From assembly GCA_029262995.1 (NCBI GenBank), contig JAJCYH010000008.1, positions 1 through 64,000 on the forward strand: a stretch of 64,000 nucleotides of DNA, in the 5' to 3' direction. The notes under the pieces are model-generated. The model saw only the letters and a program-made list of their open reading frames with translations. It searched no databases and was not told the DNA's origin. The stretch comes from Saprospiraceae bacterium. GTDB lineage: Bacteria; Bacteroidota; Bacteroidia; Chitinophagales; Saprospiraceae. Shown here piece by piece: positions 46,511 through 54,155 of the stretch (positions are counted from its first letter, which is position 1; every line of letters starts with the position of its first letter). The position numbers and the translations under genes were made by a program.

Positions 46511-47971
46511 TTAGTACTTCAGCTTCATAGCGTTTCTTTCGTATTCTTCCAATGTATTGATGTCAATTTTTTGTGCAGTATTCTTGAATGGTAATATAAA
46601 TTTGGCAGGCTTGAAATTAGAGTAAGGATAATCAGCTAAATTAATTGTGGAATCAATTAGCAATTGATAAGGTCTGCCGTTGAGTTGACGCCAGAGGACA
46701 ACATATACTTCAGCTTTTTTAATCTCTGAGTTCTTCTCGACTTCTTCACTTATAAACTTGGCCAATCGGTTAAAAGTTTTAGGCTGTCTTGGCATTCTTA
46801 AAAATTGATTGACATTGATATACTGTGGTAATTCAACTTGACCGACAATGCCTTTTCCGGGAATACCCAGTTTTACCTTTATGGCATCAGCTCTGTCTAC
46901 CAGCATCATTCGCCAGGCAAAATACTGTCCTTGTCCATGCCATGAGGTATTGCCTTTATAAAGGAATTGTCGAAAAGGAATTAATAATTGCAAACTAAAA
47001 TGTACGATCAGAACAGCTATGACCCACTTGGGCGTTCCGGTTAATTTTTTTGATGTTTTTTTAATTGGCTTGTCTTTTGACTTTTTCTTTTTCCAAATTA
47101 TTGAAACTAATCGATGTGGTAAATCAGGATCGAAAAAGATAAAAGTTGCTCCAAGCATAAACCAGGGAAAGGTGCCTATATTCCAGAGAAAATGATTTGA
47201 AACATGAAATAAAGCTAAAGGGATTAAGGCCCAGTACCTGGTTTTTTTAAATAATAAAAGAAACCCAATACTTAGATCGAAGATCAATCCAGACCAGCTT
47301 AAAAAGTAAGTGCTTATATCACTGGTAAGTAAGGATTCTTTGCTGGGATTATCTTGGTTAATATACATCCAAATTCGCATGGGGTAAGCATGCAACCAGT
47401 CATATTCTAATTTGGCTAATCCACCATAGAAATAAACGATAAACAGTTGAAATCGGATAATAAATATTTGCCAAAATGGAGCTGTGCCTTTAAGCGTTCG
47501 ATTCCATACTTTTCTAATACTAAACCATCGATCTGCATCAAGGAATATCATTAAGAAAAGAATGATACAATACAAATAATAATGATTGTTGTAATGACCT
47601 GAATCAAGAAGAAATATGTAGCTCCATCCAATAAAAAGTATCGTGATTGCCAACCTGTAAAAGATGCCTATACTGACTAGCAAACAAGCAATCTTAAGGA
47701 AGAAGAAAAGATATGCCATTGATTCTCTGGACAAGATTTTGATCCAATGGAAAAAGTCATATGTAAGAAAGAACTTCGACCGTGTAAGTTCCTTAACGAT
47801 ATAAGGTTCTATTCTGGCTAATTGCCAAAATATCATAATACCGATAAAAATGCGGAATAGTCCAATGCTAGACGCAGATACTTGTTTTGATAATAGTGAA
47901 AAGATGTTTGCTCTGTTTAACAATGGGCGATTATTTTGCCTGTGAAAATACGGAGTGTTAAAGTTAGACAA
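46511..47971 (-). CDS. HTTM / vitamin K-dependent gamma-carboxylase-like membrane protein
   Basis: 486 residues. The N-terminal half holds several membrane helices of the HTTM (horizontally transferred transmembrane) type (SSIGLFRIFIGIMIFWQLAR, FYRLAITILFIGWSYIFLLD, FQLFIVYFYGGLAKLEYDWL). The C-terminal part has LIPFRQFLYKGNTSWHGQGQ, FAWRMMLVDR and a soluble tail (LFRMPRQPK-like, VYVVLWRQLNGRPYQLLID). This layout is that of bacterial gamma-carboxylase homologs. Epoxidation/carboxylation of glutamate is known for the animal enzyme; activity of the bacterial forms is mostly undetermined. It is a single gene, convergent with the 2504-residue gene. Confidence 0.82.
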   Translation of the reverse strand: MSNFNTPYFHRQNNRPLLNRANIFSLLSKQVSASSIGLFRIFIGIMIFWQLARIEPYIVKELTRSKFFLTYDFFHWIKILSRESMAYLFFFLKIACLLVSIGIFYRLAITILFIGWSYIFLLDSGHYNNHYYLYCIILFLMIFLDADRWFSIRKVWNRTLKGTAPFWQIFIIRFQLFIVYFYGGLAKLEYDWLHAYPMRIWMYINQDNPSKESLLTSDISTYFLSWSGLIFDLSIGFLLLFKKTRYWALIPLALFHVSNHFLWNIGTFPWFMLGATFIFFDPDLPHRLVSIIWKKKKSKDKPIKKTSKKLTGTPKWVIAVLIVHFSLQLLIPFRQFLYKGNTSWHGQGQYFAWRMMLVDRADAIKVKLGIPGKGIVGQVELPQYINVNQFLRMPRQPKTFNRLAKFISEEVEKNSEIKKAEVYVVLWRQLNGRPYQLLIDSTINLADYPYSNFKPAKFILPFKNTAQKIDINTLEEYERNAMKLKY

Positions 47972-49564: not shown

Positions 49565-49716
49565 AGCTCAACATTTGTATAAATCAAGCTCAATTTTGTT
49601 CAGTTATGAGCTTTAACGTGCATTTAATGAGCTTTATTTGTTATGTGGCTCAAATTGTTTATATTTGTAGCTCAAATAGCATTAATAATGAGCTTGTCCA
49701 AACGCTAAATTGAGCT
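49565..49716 (+). promoter_or_regulatory. Eight-site operator array in the fic promoter (AGCTCA / TGAGCT)
   Basis: Sites at 49565 AGCTCA, 49587 AGCTCA, 49607 TGAGCT, 49628 TGAGCT, 49647 GGCTCA (one mismatch), 49669 AGCTCA, 49689 TGAGCT and 49711 TGAGCT. The AGCT cores are 22, 22, 21, 17, 22, 22 and 22 bases apart, and the orientation order + + - - occurs twice. The wider consensus is AAGCTCAA or its complement. Spacing of about two helical turns places all sites of a set on one DNA face. The array overlaps the -33/-7 promoter and ends 5 bases before the fic start codon. The natural candidate ligand is the N-terminal HTH of Fic (inference). Confidence 0.8.
49637..49667 (+). promoter_or_regulatory. 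Bacteroidota-type promoter of fic
   Basis: TTTG at 49637-49640 is followed after 19 bases by TATATTTG at 49660-49667, a perfect TTTG-N19-TAnnTTTG. The operator site at 49647 lies between the two boxes and the site at 49669 straddles the likely start of transcription, so protein binding here should block the polymerase. Confidence 0.7.
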
Positions 49717-49720
49717 TAAA

Positions 49721-50758
49721 ATGGAAAATAATGACAAACAAGCCTTAGATTATATCTCAAATAATCCATTAAGATCTTCAAAGGAAATACACGAAGGGAG
49801 TAATCTTGAAGTTGGATATGCCACTCTAAAACGAATTCTAAGCAGATTACACGAAAACAATTATCTTGATATCGAAGGCCGGGGTAGAGCTACGAAATAC
49901 AAAATAAGTCTCGCCTACTTTATTACCAAACCGATCGACACCGATGAGTATTTCAAACAGGAGATTGATGATAGAGAAATAAAAGAAAAATTCGATTTAG
50001 AATTGATCCCGAATGTTCTAAGTCAAATTGAATTATTTACTCAAGAAGAACTGCAAAAACTCGAAAAATTACAGAATAGATATGAGCAGAAAATTAAGAG
50101 TCTATCAAATTCACAATATCAAAGAGAACTTGAAAGATTAGCAATAGATTTAAGTTGGAAATCCTCTCAAATTGAAGGGAATACCTATTCACTGTTAGAA
50201 ACAGAGAGATTACTGAAAGAACAAGTAACAGCAGAAGGAAAAAATAAAGATGAGGCTACTATGTTGCTCAATCACAAAGACGCGATAGACTTTATAATAG
50301 AAAACTCTGATTACATAGATCTGGTGGAAATTAGGAGAATTGAGGATATCCATAGTATACTTATTAAAGATTTGGGGGTTGATAGAAACATCAGAACCAG
50401 AAGTGTTGGTATAACTGGTACTAACTATAAACCTTTAGATAATGAATACCAAATTCGAGAAGCACTGCAACACACATGTAATTTGGTTAATTCAAAAAAG
50501 AAAGTGTTTGAAAAATCCTTGTTACTGTTAGTTCTTTTGTCCTACATTCAAGCATTTAATGATGGTAACAAACGAACTGCGAGAATTGTAAGTAATGCAA
50601 GCCTAATAAATAACAAACATTGTCCAATATCATTTAGAACAATAGATTCAATAGAATACAAAAAAGCTATGCTTCTTTTCTATGAGCAAAACAATATATC
50701 AGCAATTAAAAATATATTTATTGATCAATTTGAATTTGCAGTAAAGACTTACTTTTAA
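49721..50758 (+). CDS. HTH-Fic domain protein with substituted catalytic histidine
   Basis: 345 residues. The N-terminal winged HTH is at about 1-60 (ISNNPLRSSKEIHEG, VGYATLKRILSRLHENNYL), followed by a linker helix region. The inhibitory motif SSQIEGN lies at about 148-154, upstream of the Fic core as in class II Fic proteins ((S/T)xxxE(G/N)). The core motif at about 272-284 reads IQAFNDGNKRTAR. The family motif is HxFx(D/E)GNxRxxR; here the catalytic His is Gln (codon CAA), while the Phe, Asp, Gly-Asn and Arg residues are kept. Fic proteins normally transfer AMP or related groups to target hydroxyls; the substitution puts classical AMPylation in doubt. It is likely autoregulated through the operator array directly upstream. 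Confidence 0.88.
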   Translation: MENNDKQALDYISNNPLRSSKEIHEGSNLEVGYATLKRILSRLHENNYLDIEGRGRATKYKISLAYFITKPIDTDEYFKQEIDDREIKEKFDLELIPNVLSQIELFTQEELQKLEKLQNRYEQKIKSLSNSQYQRELERLAIDLSWKSSQIEGNTYSLLETERLLKEQVTAEGKNKDEATMLLNHKDAIDFIIENSDYIDLVEIRRIEDIHSILIKDLGVDRNIRTRSVGITGTNYKPLDNEYQIREALQHTCNLVNSKKKVFEKSLLLLVLLSYIQAFNDGNKRTARIVSNASLINNKHCPISFRTIDSIEYKKAMLLFYEQNNISAIKNIFIDQFEFAVKTYF

Positions 50759-51027: not shown

Positions 51028-52989
51028 CTAATCATTTTTACGATTGAAATGTGCTTCTGAATCTGCAGCTATGTTTAGTTTGCGATCTGAAATATATCCT
51101 ACTCTGGAGCCAATTATTGATTTCACATACCTCCTCAACGCCTCATCACAAAAATATACATAACACCCCTTCATCCCCCTTGTCATCAATACCCGGTATG
51201 TATTTAAGATGAGCCTTCTTGCTAAAGCTAAAGCTTCTTCAGGTTGTTCTTTTATCATCTTCTTGATGCCTCTGATGGATTGATCCATTTTGGATCTTTC
51301 GAATACATCCGTAATGATTTCACCATTTTCGTATTTCAGGTCTAACCCTATAATTACGCCTACATAATCTAGTTCTAGGCCTTGGCAGGTATGGATGCAT
51401 CCGATTTCGTCTATGGAGTTTTCTGCGATGATCCAGTTGCTACCATCTTTGGTAAGATTCCATGTCATTTCGAAATCGTACTCTGGAATGATCACATCCT
51501 TTGCAATAGGATTCTTTTTACTTATCCAGTCCCAACAATACCCTGCAACCATCCTAGATTTGTTGTTAAGCTTATTTTTTTCTTCGATTTCATTCCGTAA
51601 TTGATTTGGGTCATCGAAGACTTTAAAATCATAATCATCTTTACTCAGCGTCTGGTTGGCTGTGTTACGTATTCCTAATAGATTGTCTAGCCAAGCAAGG
51701 TACCCATTAGAACCATTGCACCTGAATTGAGATTCTAACTTTAGAAAGTTGACTTCAGCTCCTTCTTGTTTTGCCCACTGTTTAATTTTAGATACTTCAC
51801 CTATATCTTTTAAATGTATTTGTTGATGATCATCTACAAAGAAGATGCTGAATTTGGATGCATGCATAATTTCCAGAACTTGGTTGTGCCCTAGATTACC
51901 ATATAGGCCACTTTTGAGATTTAACCTATGGGCTTCATCCACAATGAGTGTATCAAAAGCTCCATTCTCTGCATCGATAAATCCACCCGAACTTCTGAAT
52001 AAATTATTGAATTCTGTTTTCTTAATTGTTCCAGTAAGTCTACTAGCGTATACAGCCCTTGGTGCAGCATTCTTAGTAACATATTGAGCCACTAGTCCGA
52101 TTTTGGTCAGGTCAACAAGCAAATTAATGGCAACTACGCTTTTGCCTGTACCTGGGCCTCCTTCGATAATTAATACATTTTTATTTTTTGTAGAAGATTT
52201 TCGAGCGAGTTGCTTTGCTGTTTCATATACTAATTTTTGGTCATCAATTAATGTAAATTCCTCATTACCTTTTAACATTGAGGATAAAGCATCTGCCAAT
52301 TGTTTGGACGGTTTTAATTTTCCATTGTCAATGCGATAGAGAATGTTTGAATCATCACCGTATTTAATATATTTTTTAATAAAATTTCTGAGTTTAATAG
52401 CATCAGACTTCAGGAACAGAGGGGCCTTTTCAATATAATCGCTGTAAAATTCGTTGTCAATCACACCATCAGAAGTATAATTATGCAAGTAAGCGCATGG
52501 AGTAAGATTAATATCTTCTTCTTGGACGGTTTGGTTGAATCCCTTTAGCAATTGTACGTATGACCAGGCCTGGTAAGATGGATGTGATGTTTCAACCTCC
52601 CTTCCTTGGAAACAGGTAGATACTATAGCGTCTTTTGAGCTAAGGTTTGCGTTTTGCCATTGCTTTAATTCAATGACGATGACATTTTCTTTTTTATCAT
52701 GATCTTTACCTGTAATAATAAAGTCAACTCTTTTGGATGTTAATGGAATTTGGAATTCTATAGATATCATGGCATCAGAAGGAATATCCTTATCCAGGAT
52801 AATATTATTCATGTACATCATAGAGTTTTTCCAAGATTCTATTTCAGATTGAGACGTACTCCTTCCAAGATTTTTTTTAAATGCCTCATAGATAACTTCA
52901 TCTATCCTATTGGATATGACATCTTCAGTGAATTCAGACTTGTTTCCTTGATATACTATCATTCTATAATTGGTCGTATTTAGTTGCAA
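51028..52989 (-). CDS. Nuclease-helicase of the DUF2075 type
   Basis: 653 residues. The N-terminal region (about 1-130) shows a PD-(D/E)XK-like site: KRVDFIITGKD, then NVIVIELKQW (about 100-110). The helicase part has LIIEGGPGTGKSVVAINLL (Walker A, about 272-284), TLIVDEAHRLN (Walker B, about 348), FFVDDHQQI, LKLESQFRCNGSNGYL, IHTCQGLELDYVGVIIG and LNTYRVLMTRGMKGCYVYF. This is the DUF2075/Schlafen-like superfamily 1 helicase pattern. Its start lies inside the end of the MazG-like gene (26-base overlap), so the two are one transcription unit. Such nuclease-helicases often sit in defence islands; the role here is inferred. Confidence 0.87.
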   Translation of the reverse strand: MQLNTTNYRMIVYQGNKSEFTEDVISNRIDEVIYEAFKKNLGRSTSQSEIESWKNSMMYMNNIILDKDIPSDAMISIEFQIPLTSKRVDFIITGKDHDKKENVIVIELKQWQNANLSSKDAIVSTCFQGREVETSHPSYQAWSYVQLLKGFNQTVQEEDINLTPCAYLHNYTSDGVIDNEFYSDYIEKAPLFLKSDAIKLRNFIKKYIKYGDDSNILYRIDNGKLKPSKQLADALSSMLKGNEEFTLIDDQKLVYETAKQLARKSSTKNKNVLIIEGGPGTGKSVVAINLLVDLTKIGLVAQYVTKNAAPRAVYASRLTGTIKKTEFNNLFRSSGGFIDAENGAFDTLIVDEAHRLNLKSGLYGNLGHNQVLEIMHASKFSIFFVDDHQQIHLKDIGEVSKIKQWAKQEGAEVNFLKLESQFRCNGSNGYLAWLDNLLGIRNTANQTLSKDDYDFKVFDDPNQLRNEIEEKNKLNNKSRMVAGYCWDWISKKNPIAKDVIIPEYDFEMTWNLTKDGSNWIIAENSIDEIGCIHTCQGLELDYVGVIIGLDLKYENGEIITDVFERSKMDQSIRGIKKMIKEQPEEALALARRLILNTYRVLMTRGMKGCYVYFCDEALRRYVKSIIGSRVGYISDRKLNIAADSEAHFNRKND

Positions 52990-53302
52990 CCCCTTTTGAT
53001 TTGTCGATAGAGTATTTTCCTTCGTTTGCTTTTAATTTTTCGAATATAATTTCCTTCACATCAAATCCATTTTTTTCAGCTAAAAGAAAAGCGAAAGCAA
53101 ATACATCAGCCAACTCTTCCTTTATCCTTTGCGGATCTACCTTTTCAGATTCCGCTATCGATTTCCAAAGGAAAAGTTCATTTAATTCGGCGGCTTCTAT
53201 TGAAATAGCTGTAGCAAGGTTTTTGGAGTCATGAAATTGTTTCCAGTCGCGAGCATCTCGGAACTCAATGAGGTGTTTTATGATTTCTTGAATATCAGTC
53301 AT
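52964..53302 (-). CDS. MazG-like nucleotide pyrophosphohydrolase (dCTPase/RS21-C6 type)
   Basis: 112 residues of all-alpha NTP pyrophosphohydrolase type. RDWKQFHDSKNLATAISIEA is followed by AELNELFLW (first E of the EExxE site), and EELADVFAFAFLLAEK carries the ExxD metal site. NEGKYSIDKSKGVATKYDQL is the usual C-terminus of small dCTP/NTP pyrophosphatases. It hydrolyses (d)NTPs to monophosphates. The gene overlaps the start of the downstream nuclease-helicase gene by 26 bases. Confidence 0.9.
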   Translation of the reverse strand: MTDIQEIIKHLIEFRDARDWKQFHDSKNLATAISIEAAELNELFLWKSIAESEKVDPQRIKEELADVFAFAFLLAEKNGFDVKEIIFEKLKANEGKYSIDKSKGVATKYDQL

Positions 53303-53812: not shown

Positions 53813-53822
53813 GTACTTAGTG

Positions 53823-53896
53823 TGGTTCCACAAGGACTCGAACCTTGGACCCTCTGATTATGAGTCAGATGCTCTAACCAGCTGAGCTATGGAACC
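53823..53896 (-). tRNA. tRNA with anticodon CAU (elongator Met, or Ile2)
   Basis: 74 nucleotides with a complete cloverleaf: acceptor GGTTCCA/TGGAACC plus discriminator A, D arm GCTC AGCTGGTTA GAGC, anticodon stem TCTGA/TCAGA with loop CTCATAA (anticodon CAT), T arm CAAGG TTCGAGT CCTTG. CCA is not encoded. CAU can be elongator Met or, with lysidine at position 34, Ile2; the sequence alone does not settle which. It is not an initiator, judging by the standard acceptor pair G1-C72. Upstream on the minus strand lie four decayed tRNA-like units. Confidence 0.93.
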
Positions 53897-54155
53897 TAAT
53901 TATATTAGGCAGTACTCAGATCAACTGAGCTATGCCTGCCTGCCATACTGCAAGGTAGGCAGGGAACCTAATTATATTAGGCAGTACTCAGATCAACTGA
54001 GCTATGCCTGCCTGCCATACCGCAAGGTAGGCAGGGAACCTAATAATTAAAAGCTCAAACCAACTGAGCTATGCTTGCCTGCCGTACTGCTATGCAGGTA
54101 GGTAGGGAACCAGTTTATTTTTCTGGCTGCCTTACCGCTAGGTAGGCAGGGAACC
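53897..54155 (-). repeat. Array of split tRNA 5'-half repeats (72-bp period) carrying a GC palindrome
   Basis: The marker GGTTCC (GGAACC on plus) recurs at 53896, 53968, 54040, 54111 and 54155, so periods are 72, 72, 71 and 44 bases. On the minus strand each unit reads GGTTCC, then a 29-base palindromic insert (CTGCCTACC ... GGCAGG), then ATAGCTCAGTTG, TGAGTACTGCC and an AT tail. GGTTCC...ATAGCTCAG is the 5' end of the intact tRNA (GGTTCCATAGCTCAG), split after base 6. Units 1 and 2 are nearly identical (one difference), unit 3 is diverged, and unit 4 is truncated. Confidence 0.85.

What the first reader, a model, noticed from the sequence alone, without database searches (positions are those of the whole stretch)
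49565..49716. Two sets of four phased AGCTCA sites over the fic promoter
The 150 bases upstream of fic hold eight copies of AGCTCA/TGAGCT (one with a mismatch). AGCT cores are spaced 22, 22, 21, 17, 22, 22 and 22 bases, and the orientation + + - - is repeated twice. The copies overlap a perfect TTTG-N19-TAnnTTTG promoter. In AT-rich DNA this many 6-mers in register is far beyond chance. Two helical turns per step suggests cooperative binding along one DNA face. The N-terminal winged HTH of Fic is the obvious ligand (inference); the divergent DUF2779 gene would be controlled from the same stretch.
Basis: partly seen in the sequence, partly recalled or inferred. Interest (0 to 1): 0.78.

Follow-up and report, generated by a model that had tools for sequence, protein, structure and literature searches.

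The report
Phased operator of a self-regulating Fic
Upstream of a bacterial Fic gene lies a strictly spaced set of short DNA words that is kept, in spacing if not always in wording, in front of its relatives across many bacteria, and it is most likely the docking site through which the Fic protein switches its own gene down.

Summary
Seven exact AGCTCA/TGAGCT sites and one GGCTCA lie at 49565-49716, as two quartets oriented → → ← ←, over a perfect Bacteroidota-type promoter directly before fic. It is not local. Of 109 upstream regions of fic and its relatives (37-80% identity), 93 hold an identical non-AT 6-mer pair exactly 22 bp apart, against 4 of 327 coding control windows. The quartet geometry (about 22/20/22 bp) survives where the word has changed to GGACA, CGGTC or ATCCTATCA. 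No neighbouring gene is widely shared. AlphaFold gives a confident N-terminal winged helix. In an unguided scan of alignment columns, the one best associated with operator base -1 is residue 33, first of the recognition helix. Best reading: an autorepressor operator read by Fic's own winged helix. Binding and repression are inferred. The Fic domain lacks the catalytic histidine (Gln in 109 of 110), so it may be a non-AMPylating sensor or scaffold. Closest precedent: CccR of Yersinia, with C-terminal HTH, active Fic domain and one inverted repeat. The suggested control of the divergent DUF2779 gene is not supported.

The parts
49565..49570 (+). operator half-site 1 (AGCTCA), distal quartet
49587..49592 (+). 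operator half-site 2 (AGCTCA), distal quartet
49607..49612 (-). operator half-site 3 (TGAGCT on +), distal quartet
49628..49633 (-). operator half-site 4 (TGAGCT on +), distal quartet
49647..49652 (+). operator half-site 5 (GGCTCA), proximal quartet; G at -1 is a common natural variant
49669..49674 (+). operator half-site 6 (AGCTCA), proximal quartet, just after the -7 box
49689..49694 (-). operator half-site 7 (TGAGCT on +), proximal quartet
49711..49716 (-). operator half-site 8 (TGAGCT on +), proximal quartet, 4 bases before the fic start
49637..49667 (+). predicted fic promoter TTTG-N19-TATATTTG (Bacteroidota -33/-7 type; promoter type recalled from general knowledge)
   Evidence: position in relatives
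49721..50758 (+). fic, 345 aa: N-terminal winged helix plus Fic domain with Gln in place of the catalytic His
49721..49906 (+). winged helix-turn-helix of Fic (residues 1-62; recognition helix 33-45, wing strands 49-52 and 59-62)
   Evidence: AlphaFold2 model; columns 33 and 55 associate with operator bases
50549..50584 (+). degenerate FIC motif QAFNDGNKRTAR (residues 277-288)

Best explanation
The array is the operator of an autoregulated, self-contained fic gene. The N-terminal winged helix of the Fic protein reads a half-site of about nine bases with GCTCA core. Four half-sites, → → ← ← with centres at 0, 22, 42 and 64 bp (about two helical turns per step), bind one Fic tetramer or pair of dimers on one DNA face. 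The quartet lies on the TAnnTTTG promoter, so the bound protein keeps RNA polymerase off and holds Fic low. In this window a second quartet further upstream adds cooperative occupancy. The Fic domain lacks the AMPylation histidine and probably serves as an oligomerising or ligand-sensing part that sets when repression is lifted. Shown here: the sites, their conservation, geometry and promoter overlap, and a statistical link between recognition-helix residue and operator base. Inferred: binding, repression, oligomeric state, ligand.
For: Word-free geometry score: 110 of 110 upstream regions (the window's and 109 relatives') exceed the largest of 110 shuffles. Identical non-AT 6-mer pair at exactly 22 bp in 93 of 109 upstream regions versus 4 of 327 windows inside the genes. 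Loci divergent in word but not geometry: GGACA in L005, CGGTC in L084/L169, AGGTCA in L004, ATCCTATCA in L180/L181. In 578,808 bases of 68 loci (both strands) a matrix made from such sites gives 172 scan positions above 36 bits within 260 bp upstream of fic and none elsewhere; 65 of the 68 have one or more. The own 3.77-Mb genome has no other quartet of this spacing at up to 3 mismatches and no other exact three-site run with looser spacing. No conserved neighbour in 68 loci; next best cluster 6 loci. An exact TAnnTTTG ends flush with site 4 in 40 cases and 2 bp further in 10, over 102 loci with a canonical quartet. Winged helix predicted with confidence (mean pLDDT 87.8). Column 33 ranks first for base -1 in 102 loci (adjusted R2 0.56), first in 44 representatives and second in 29 and in 13; 2 of 5000 permutations reach it at n=29. 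Experimental precedent: CccR, a Fic-HTH protein, represses its own promoter through an inverted repeat (PMC9755527).
Against: No binding or expression data. Global co-divergence does not single out the HTH: partial r of word with HTH given Fic domain is 0.23, but with Fic domain given HTH it is 0.29. After collapsing to 44, 29 or 13 representatives other columns, some in the Fic domain, score close to or above column 33. A first guess that an Arg in the wing goes with a pyrimidine at -1 was broken by L175. Two orphan quartets have no fic nearby (L136/L184, L117). One control Fic gene of another type reached a quartet score of 44.4, inside the family's range (min 39.8), and 3 of 20 such controls have a 22-bp pair. 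L179 was left out; it scored barely above its shuffles (32.6 versus 32.2).
Confidence: 0.85

Rival explanations
1. A different, host-encoded transcription factor binds the array and controls fic; Fic itself does not bind.
For: No binding data exist for this Fic. Two orphan quartets (L136/L184, L117) lie away from any fic. Partial correlations do not separate HTH from Fic domain.
Against: The array travels with fic across Bacteroidota and into records named as Proteobacteria (L034-L037, L053) with no other gene widely in common. The word follows the residue at the start of Fic's recognition helix. The own genome has no second quartet of this spacing.
Confidence: 0.08
2. The inverted words act in the RNA as hairpins (attenuator or riboregulator) in the fic leader.
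For: Sites 2 and 3 are inverted with a 14-nt gap, and words change together in both arms, as an RNA stem would also require.
Against: In many single-quartet loci the TAnnTTTG box ends flush with site 4, so sites 1-3 would not be transcribed (transcription start inferred). Direct-repeat identity at 22 bp is not needed for a stem. Several remote relatives have direct repeats near 20 bp instead.
Confidence: 0.03
3. The protein binds the array but activates, or both activates and represses, its own promoter.
For: Position alone cannot tell sign; a second quartet is called in 19 of 102 loci by the threshold used.
Against: The Fic-HTH protein with a tested operator that I found, CccR, represses (PMC9755527), and the quartet covers the promoter.
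Confidence: 0.1
4. The array is a recombination or partition site of a mobile element that carries fic.
For: Several remote plasmid-borne relatives lie next to integrases or recombinases; family members are scattered across phyla.
Against: No conserved mobile gene near the close relatives; strict tie to the fic promoter.
Confidence: 0.02

Closest known systems
CccR of Yersinia pseudotuberculosis (Fic domain plus C-terminal HTH; PMC9755527)
   Same: Fic protein with a DNA-binding HTH that binds its own promoter near the promoter boxes and represses itself; inverted half-sites; dimer needed (section 10, part 1, read).
   Different: HTH is C-terminal; catalytic His192 is present and needed for AMPylation (passage); operator is one inverted repeat of 10-bp boxes with a 26-bp spacer, not a → → ← ← quartet; T6SS effector.
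CbFic2 of Coxiella burnetii and SoFic (3eqx) of Shewanella oneidensis
   Same: Fic proteins with a winged HTH; CbFic2 binds DNA and is stimulated by it (passages of PMC10628234). Both appear among the fold matches (8cil, 3eqx).
   Different: wHTH is C-terminal with N-terminal DUF4172; CbFic2 was tested with random DNA, no specific operator in the passages read; DNA binding of SoFic not shown according to that paper.
BT_2513 (3cuc), Fic protein of Bacteroides thetaiotaomicron
   Same: Fic fold; fold match with TM 0.73-0.74 normalised to the target.
   Different: 262-268 residues in the chains, 17% identity; no operator known to me.
Fic-HTH fusions listed by Kinch et al. 2009 (PMC2686095)
   Same: They proposed that HTH domains fused to Fic may regulate expression of fic (passages read).
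   Different: A proposal; no operators in the passages read.
Phd-Doc type toxin-antitoxin autoregulation
   Same: A Fic-fold protein tied to repression of its own promoter.
   Different: In Phd-Doc a separate antitoxin binds DNA (noted in the passage); here the DNA-binding part is in the same chain and no partner gene of 100 aa or more is conserved.

Membership tests
Fic/Doc (Fido) fold proteins | Fic domain by profile and fold | tested here: met
   PF02661 E 5e-13; FICD, BT_2513 and SoFic are fold matches
Fic/Doc (Fido) fold proteins | Catalytic motif HPFx[D/E]GN[G/K]R of AMPylating members | tested here: not met
   QAFNDGNKR; Gln in 109 of 110 aligned members, the exception L175 (Asp) being a broken gene; His in 20 of 20 non-family Fic controls
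Class II Fic (inhibitory helix before the Fic core) | (S/T)xxxE(G/N) motif N-terminal to the core (class definition recalled) | tested here: met
   SSQIEGN; Ser148, Glu152 and Gly153 invariant in 110 of 110
Fic-HTH autorepressors (CccR type) | HTH/wHTH domain in the Fic chain | tested here: met
   but at the N-terminus, not the C-terminus
Fic-HTH autorepressors (CccR type) | Dyad-symmetric operator over own promoter | tested here: met
   by sequence only:
Fic-HTH autorepressors (CccR type) | Protein binds operator and represses | not testable with these tools
   needs gel shift, footprint, reporter
Fic-HTH autorepressors (CccR type) | AMPylation activity | not testable with these tools
   His to Gln makes it unlikely by the usual mechanism (inference)
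Two-gene Fic toxin-antitoxin (FicTA, Phd-Doc) | Conserved adjacent antitoxin gene | tested here: not met
   no conserved neighbour of 100 aa or more in 68 loci; shorter ORFs, the size of many antitoxins, were not clustered

The most novel reading that the evidence does not exclude
N-terminal winged-helix Fic proteins with Gln for the catalytic His form a widespread class of pseudoenzyme transcription regulators. They read phased arrays (→ → ← ← at 22/20/22 bp in the family of this window, direct repeats near 20 bp in several remote, mostly Proteobacterial, relatives). The array geometry is fixed by the protein assembly while the word drifts with the recognition helix, and the His-less Fic pocket senses a nucleotide or AMPylated ligand to lift repression.
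Probability: 0.35. Interest if true: 0.78.

Novelty: new variant of a known kind. Interest (0 to 1): 0.62.

Why it matters
It turns a large, unexplained branch of Fic proteins into a testable class: regulators whose operators can be read straight from the DNA. The fixed geometry with drifting words gives a natural set of protein-DNA specificity pairs, and the conserved but His-less Fic pocket raises the question of what it senses.

Tried and rejected
Chance clustering: rejected. Divergent control of DUF2779: not supported, neighbour not conserved. Wing-Arg with pyrimidine at -1: proposed, then broken by L175 (wing RR with G at -1). Mantel test as proof of HTH specificity: inconclusive. RNA hairpin: disfavoured. 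Viral origin: no relative found in viral contigs by the six peptide patterns used; 4 phage records with partial matches, none covering 80%. Defence assignment: only the Fic domain matches PADLOC SoFic and PDC-S04 models. NCBIfam gives no family above cut-off for this protein.

Rows dropped: of 131 loci held with a start codon, one search scored 110 (window and L100 included). Left out were the duplicates L143, L146, L158, L166, L169; the 5'-truncated L171; the remote relatives L172-L174 and L186-L195; L179 (one internal stop in the search row); and L067 (14 bp of upstream DNA). Fragments L007, L008, L094, L095, L102, L104-L109 were never scored. One search used 109 (L048 has 147 bp); the 16 without a 22-bp pair are L032, L034, L036, L060, L072, L077, L080, L082, L083, L090, L004, L100, L145, L157, L152, L153. 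The 110 loci include near-identical pairs; collapsing the 102 canonical-word loci at Fic-domain distance 0.2 leaves 44. Control windows are coding DNA. The matrix was made from loci it scans; of 68, L067, L077 and L084 have no hit. L005 was unscored by the GCTCA matrix but scored by the word-free method.

Full report
WHAT IS THERE. The 152 bases at 49565-49716, just before fic, hold seven exact AGCTCA/TGAGCT sites and one GGCTCA, in the order + + - - + + - -, with core spacings 22, 22, 21, 17, 22, 22, 22. A perfect TTTG-N19-TATATTTG lies at 49637-49667, over site 5 and up to 1 bp before site 6. Seven exact copies in 152 bp has a Poisson probability near 2e-12. The gene that follows encodes 345 residues with a Fic domain (PF02661, E 5e-13).

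IS IT CONSERVED? Relatives were collected from species genomes (79 loci) and from whole-genome searches. A first look for the exact 6-mer in 69 loci already showed the same array near the start codon in many; L031 has all eight sites exact, and about a third have none or one. A weight matrix then gave the half-site: [AT][AT][TA][CAT][AG]GCTCA, with geometry 22/20/22 in most. Because a matrix can find what it is built from, I also scored geometry without any word. 110 of 110 upstream regions, the window's and those of 109 relatives with 37-80% identity, exceed the maximum of 110 shuffles. That score mildly favours 22-bp steps. With no such preference, an identical non-AT 6-mer pair exactly 22 bp apart occurs in 93 of 109 regions and in 4 of 327 windows inside the genes; among spacings of 5-109 bp no other occurs in more than 19 regions. 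The loci are not independent: the 102 canonical-word loci collapse to 44 at Fic-domain distance 0.2.

THE WORD CHANGES, THE GEOMETRY DOES NOT. L005 (59% identical) uses GGACA, L084/L169 CGGTC, L004 AGGTCA, L177 TTTCG[CT]TCA, L178 TTTCTGCT, and L180 and L181 ATCCTATCA, all as → → ← ← quartets with 21-22 bp steps, though one of the four sites is poor in L004 and L181. L182 is weak (39.2 against a shuffle maximum of 36.6), L002 too (38.0 against 36.4), and L179 is barely above its shuffles (32.6 against 32.2). A group of rumen loci (L072, L073, L077, L098, L101, L103) has a poor third site.

WHERE IT SITS. An exact TAnnTTTG lies within 170 bp upstream in 86 of 110 loci. Over 102 loci with a canonical quartet, such a box ends flush with site 4 in 40 cases, 2 bp further on in 10, and at +44 in 14. 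In this window it lies between sites 1 and 2 of the proximal quartet. In these cases the quartet covers the promoter. A second quartet is called in 19 of 102.

SPECIFICITY. Over 578,808 bases of 68 loci, the 172 scan positions above 36 bits all lie within 260 bp upstream of fic; 65 of 68 loci have at least one. The matrix was trained on such loci, so the absence elsewhere is the informative part. A pattern-only search of 395 genomes of the phylum, blind to the protein, gave nine genomes with at most two mismatches. Five lie before an intact fic (G000, G208, G099, G103, G157), one before a decayed fic (G353), two have none nearby (G167, G212), and one (G240) was not examined. In the same 395 genomes a protein search finds close relatives (59% identity or more) in seven, the five above plus G019 and G341, whose sites depart from the pattern. 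Hits at three mismatches are mostly chance: the pattern read backwards also matched in ten of the listed genomes. The own genome has no other quartet of this exact spacing; the distal quartet of the window itself escapes that pattern by one base, so a variant elsewhere could too.

WHO BINDS? No neighbouring gene is widely shared by the loci (68 loci, 427 ORFs of 100 aa or more; next best cluster 6 loci), so the array and fic are the conserved unit. The AlphaFold model has helices 3-14, 20-26 and 33-45 and strands 49-52 and 59-62, a winged helix with recognition helix 33-45. Testing each variable alignment column against operator base -1, the best column is residue 33 (adjusted R2 0.56, 102 loci; 273 of 345 columns have three or more residue types in the 110-row alignment). 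It stays first with 44 representatives and second with 29 and 13; 2 of 5000 permutations reach the observed value at n=29. Tyr goes mostly with A (163 of 224 sites), Leu with G (90 of 124), Asp/Glu with T (15 of 16). For base -3 the best column in the full set is residue 55 in the wing, but this weakens after collapsing; for base -2 the best is residue 47, with 33 second, and this is lost after collapsing. The overall Mantel test does not separate HTH from Fic domain.

THE FIC DOMAIN. The catalytic histidine is Gln in 109 of 110 aligned members; the exception is a broken gene. Glu152 of the inhibitory motif and the DGNKR residues are invariant. Twenty of 20 non-family Fic genes from related genomes have HPF; 3 of 20 have a 22-bp pair and their quartet scores run 27 to 44. 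I infer that this family does not AMPylate by the usual mechanism and that the pocket may sense a ligand.

REMOTE RELATIVES. 23 remote relatives (13 from plasmids, 10 from genomes; 27-41% identical) were inspected. The motif could be read in 22, and all 22 have Gln. Seven show clear repeats near 20 bp by eye: L191 has five copies at exactly 20 bp, and L192, L193, L194, L196, L200 and L202 have steps of 19-21 bp (L193 also one of 40). Others, such as L174, L190, L187 and L195, do not show it or carry unrelated short tandem repeats. This extension is suggestive, not tested.

LITERATURE. CccR (PMC9755527; outline with abstract, first part of section 10, and passages) is a Fic protein with C-terminal HTH that represses itself through a 10-N26-10 inverted repeat. 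CbFic2 (PMC10628234, passages) binds DNA and has a C-terminal wHTH. Kinch et al. (PMC2686095, passages) proposed that HTH domains fused to Fic may regulate fic. Other papers were seen only in search listings. In the listings of my eight searches I saw nothing on this operator or family.

VERDICT. A real, conserved array that is best read as the operator of a self-regulating Fic protein: known in principle from CccR, new in architecture, in domain order and in its His-less Fic domain.

Noticed in passing
L136 1501-1568 (= L184 2683-2750) and L117 1501-1568: Orphan quartets with no fic or fic trace nearby, one before a small 174-aa gene, one (two mismatches) between clpX-like and serB-like genes; remnants of lost fic or targets in trans.
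   Followed up: partly
L118 1092-1500: Quartet (one mismatch to the pattern) followed by a decayed fic fragment with matches in pieces: gene loss with operator left behind.
   Followed up: partly
L072, L073, L077, L098, L101, L103 upstream of fic: Third half-site degenerate at the expected place; by eye a TGCGCCGA-like word lies about 10 bp (one helical turn) nearer to site 2.
   Followed up: no
window 53822-54090: tRNA-Met (53822-53896, minus strand) followed by a 72-bp tandem array (53891-54090, 2.8 copies) of what look like tRNA fragments; it and the tRNA hold most AGCTCA matches at 53883-54070.
   Followed up: partly
window 51028-53302: Schlafen group 3-type helicase gene (weak PADLOC hits to PDC-S41, Nhi, AbiO) next to a MazG-like gene, downstream of fic on the other strand; possible defence genes.
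   Followed up: no
window 46511-47971: HTTM / vitamin K-dependent gamma-carboxylase-like gene.
   Followed up: no
L198, L199, L201, L203, L205: Remote plasmid-borne HTH-Fic genes beside integrase or recombinase genes, each with upstream repeats of a short G+C-containing word.
   Followed up: no
L034-L037, L053: Records named Thiomargarita, Proteobacteria, Parabeggiatoa, Halobeggiatoa and Lysobacterales hold the same fic and quartet, suggesting transfer between phyla (four of the five are labelled MAG, so misbinning is possible).
   Followed up: no
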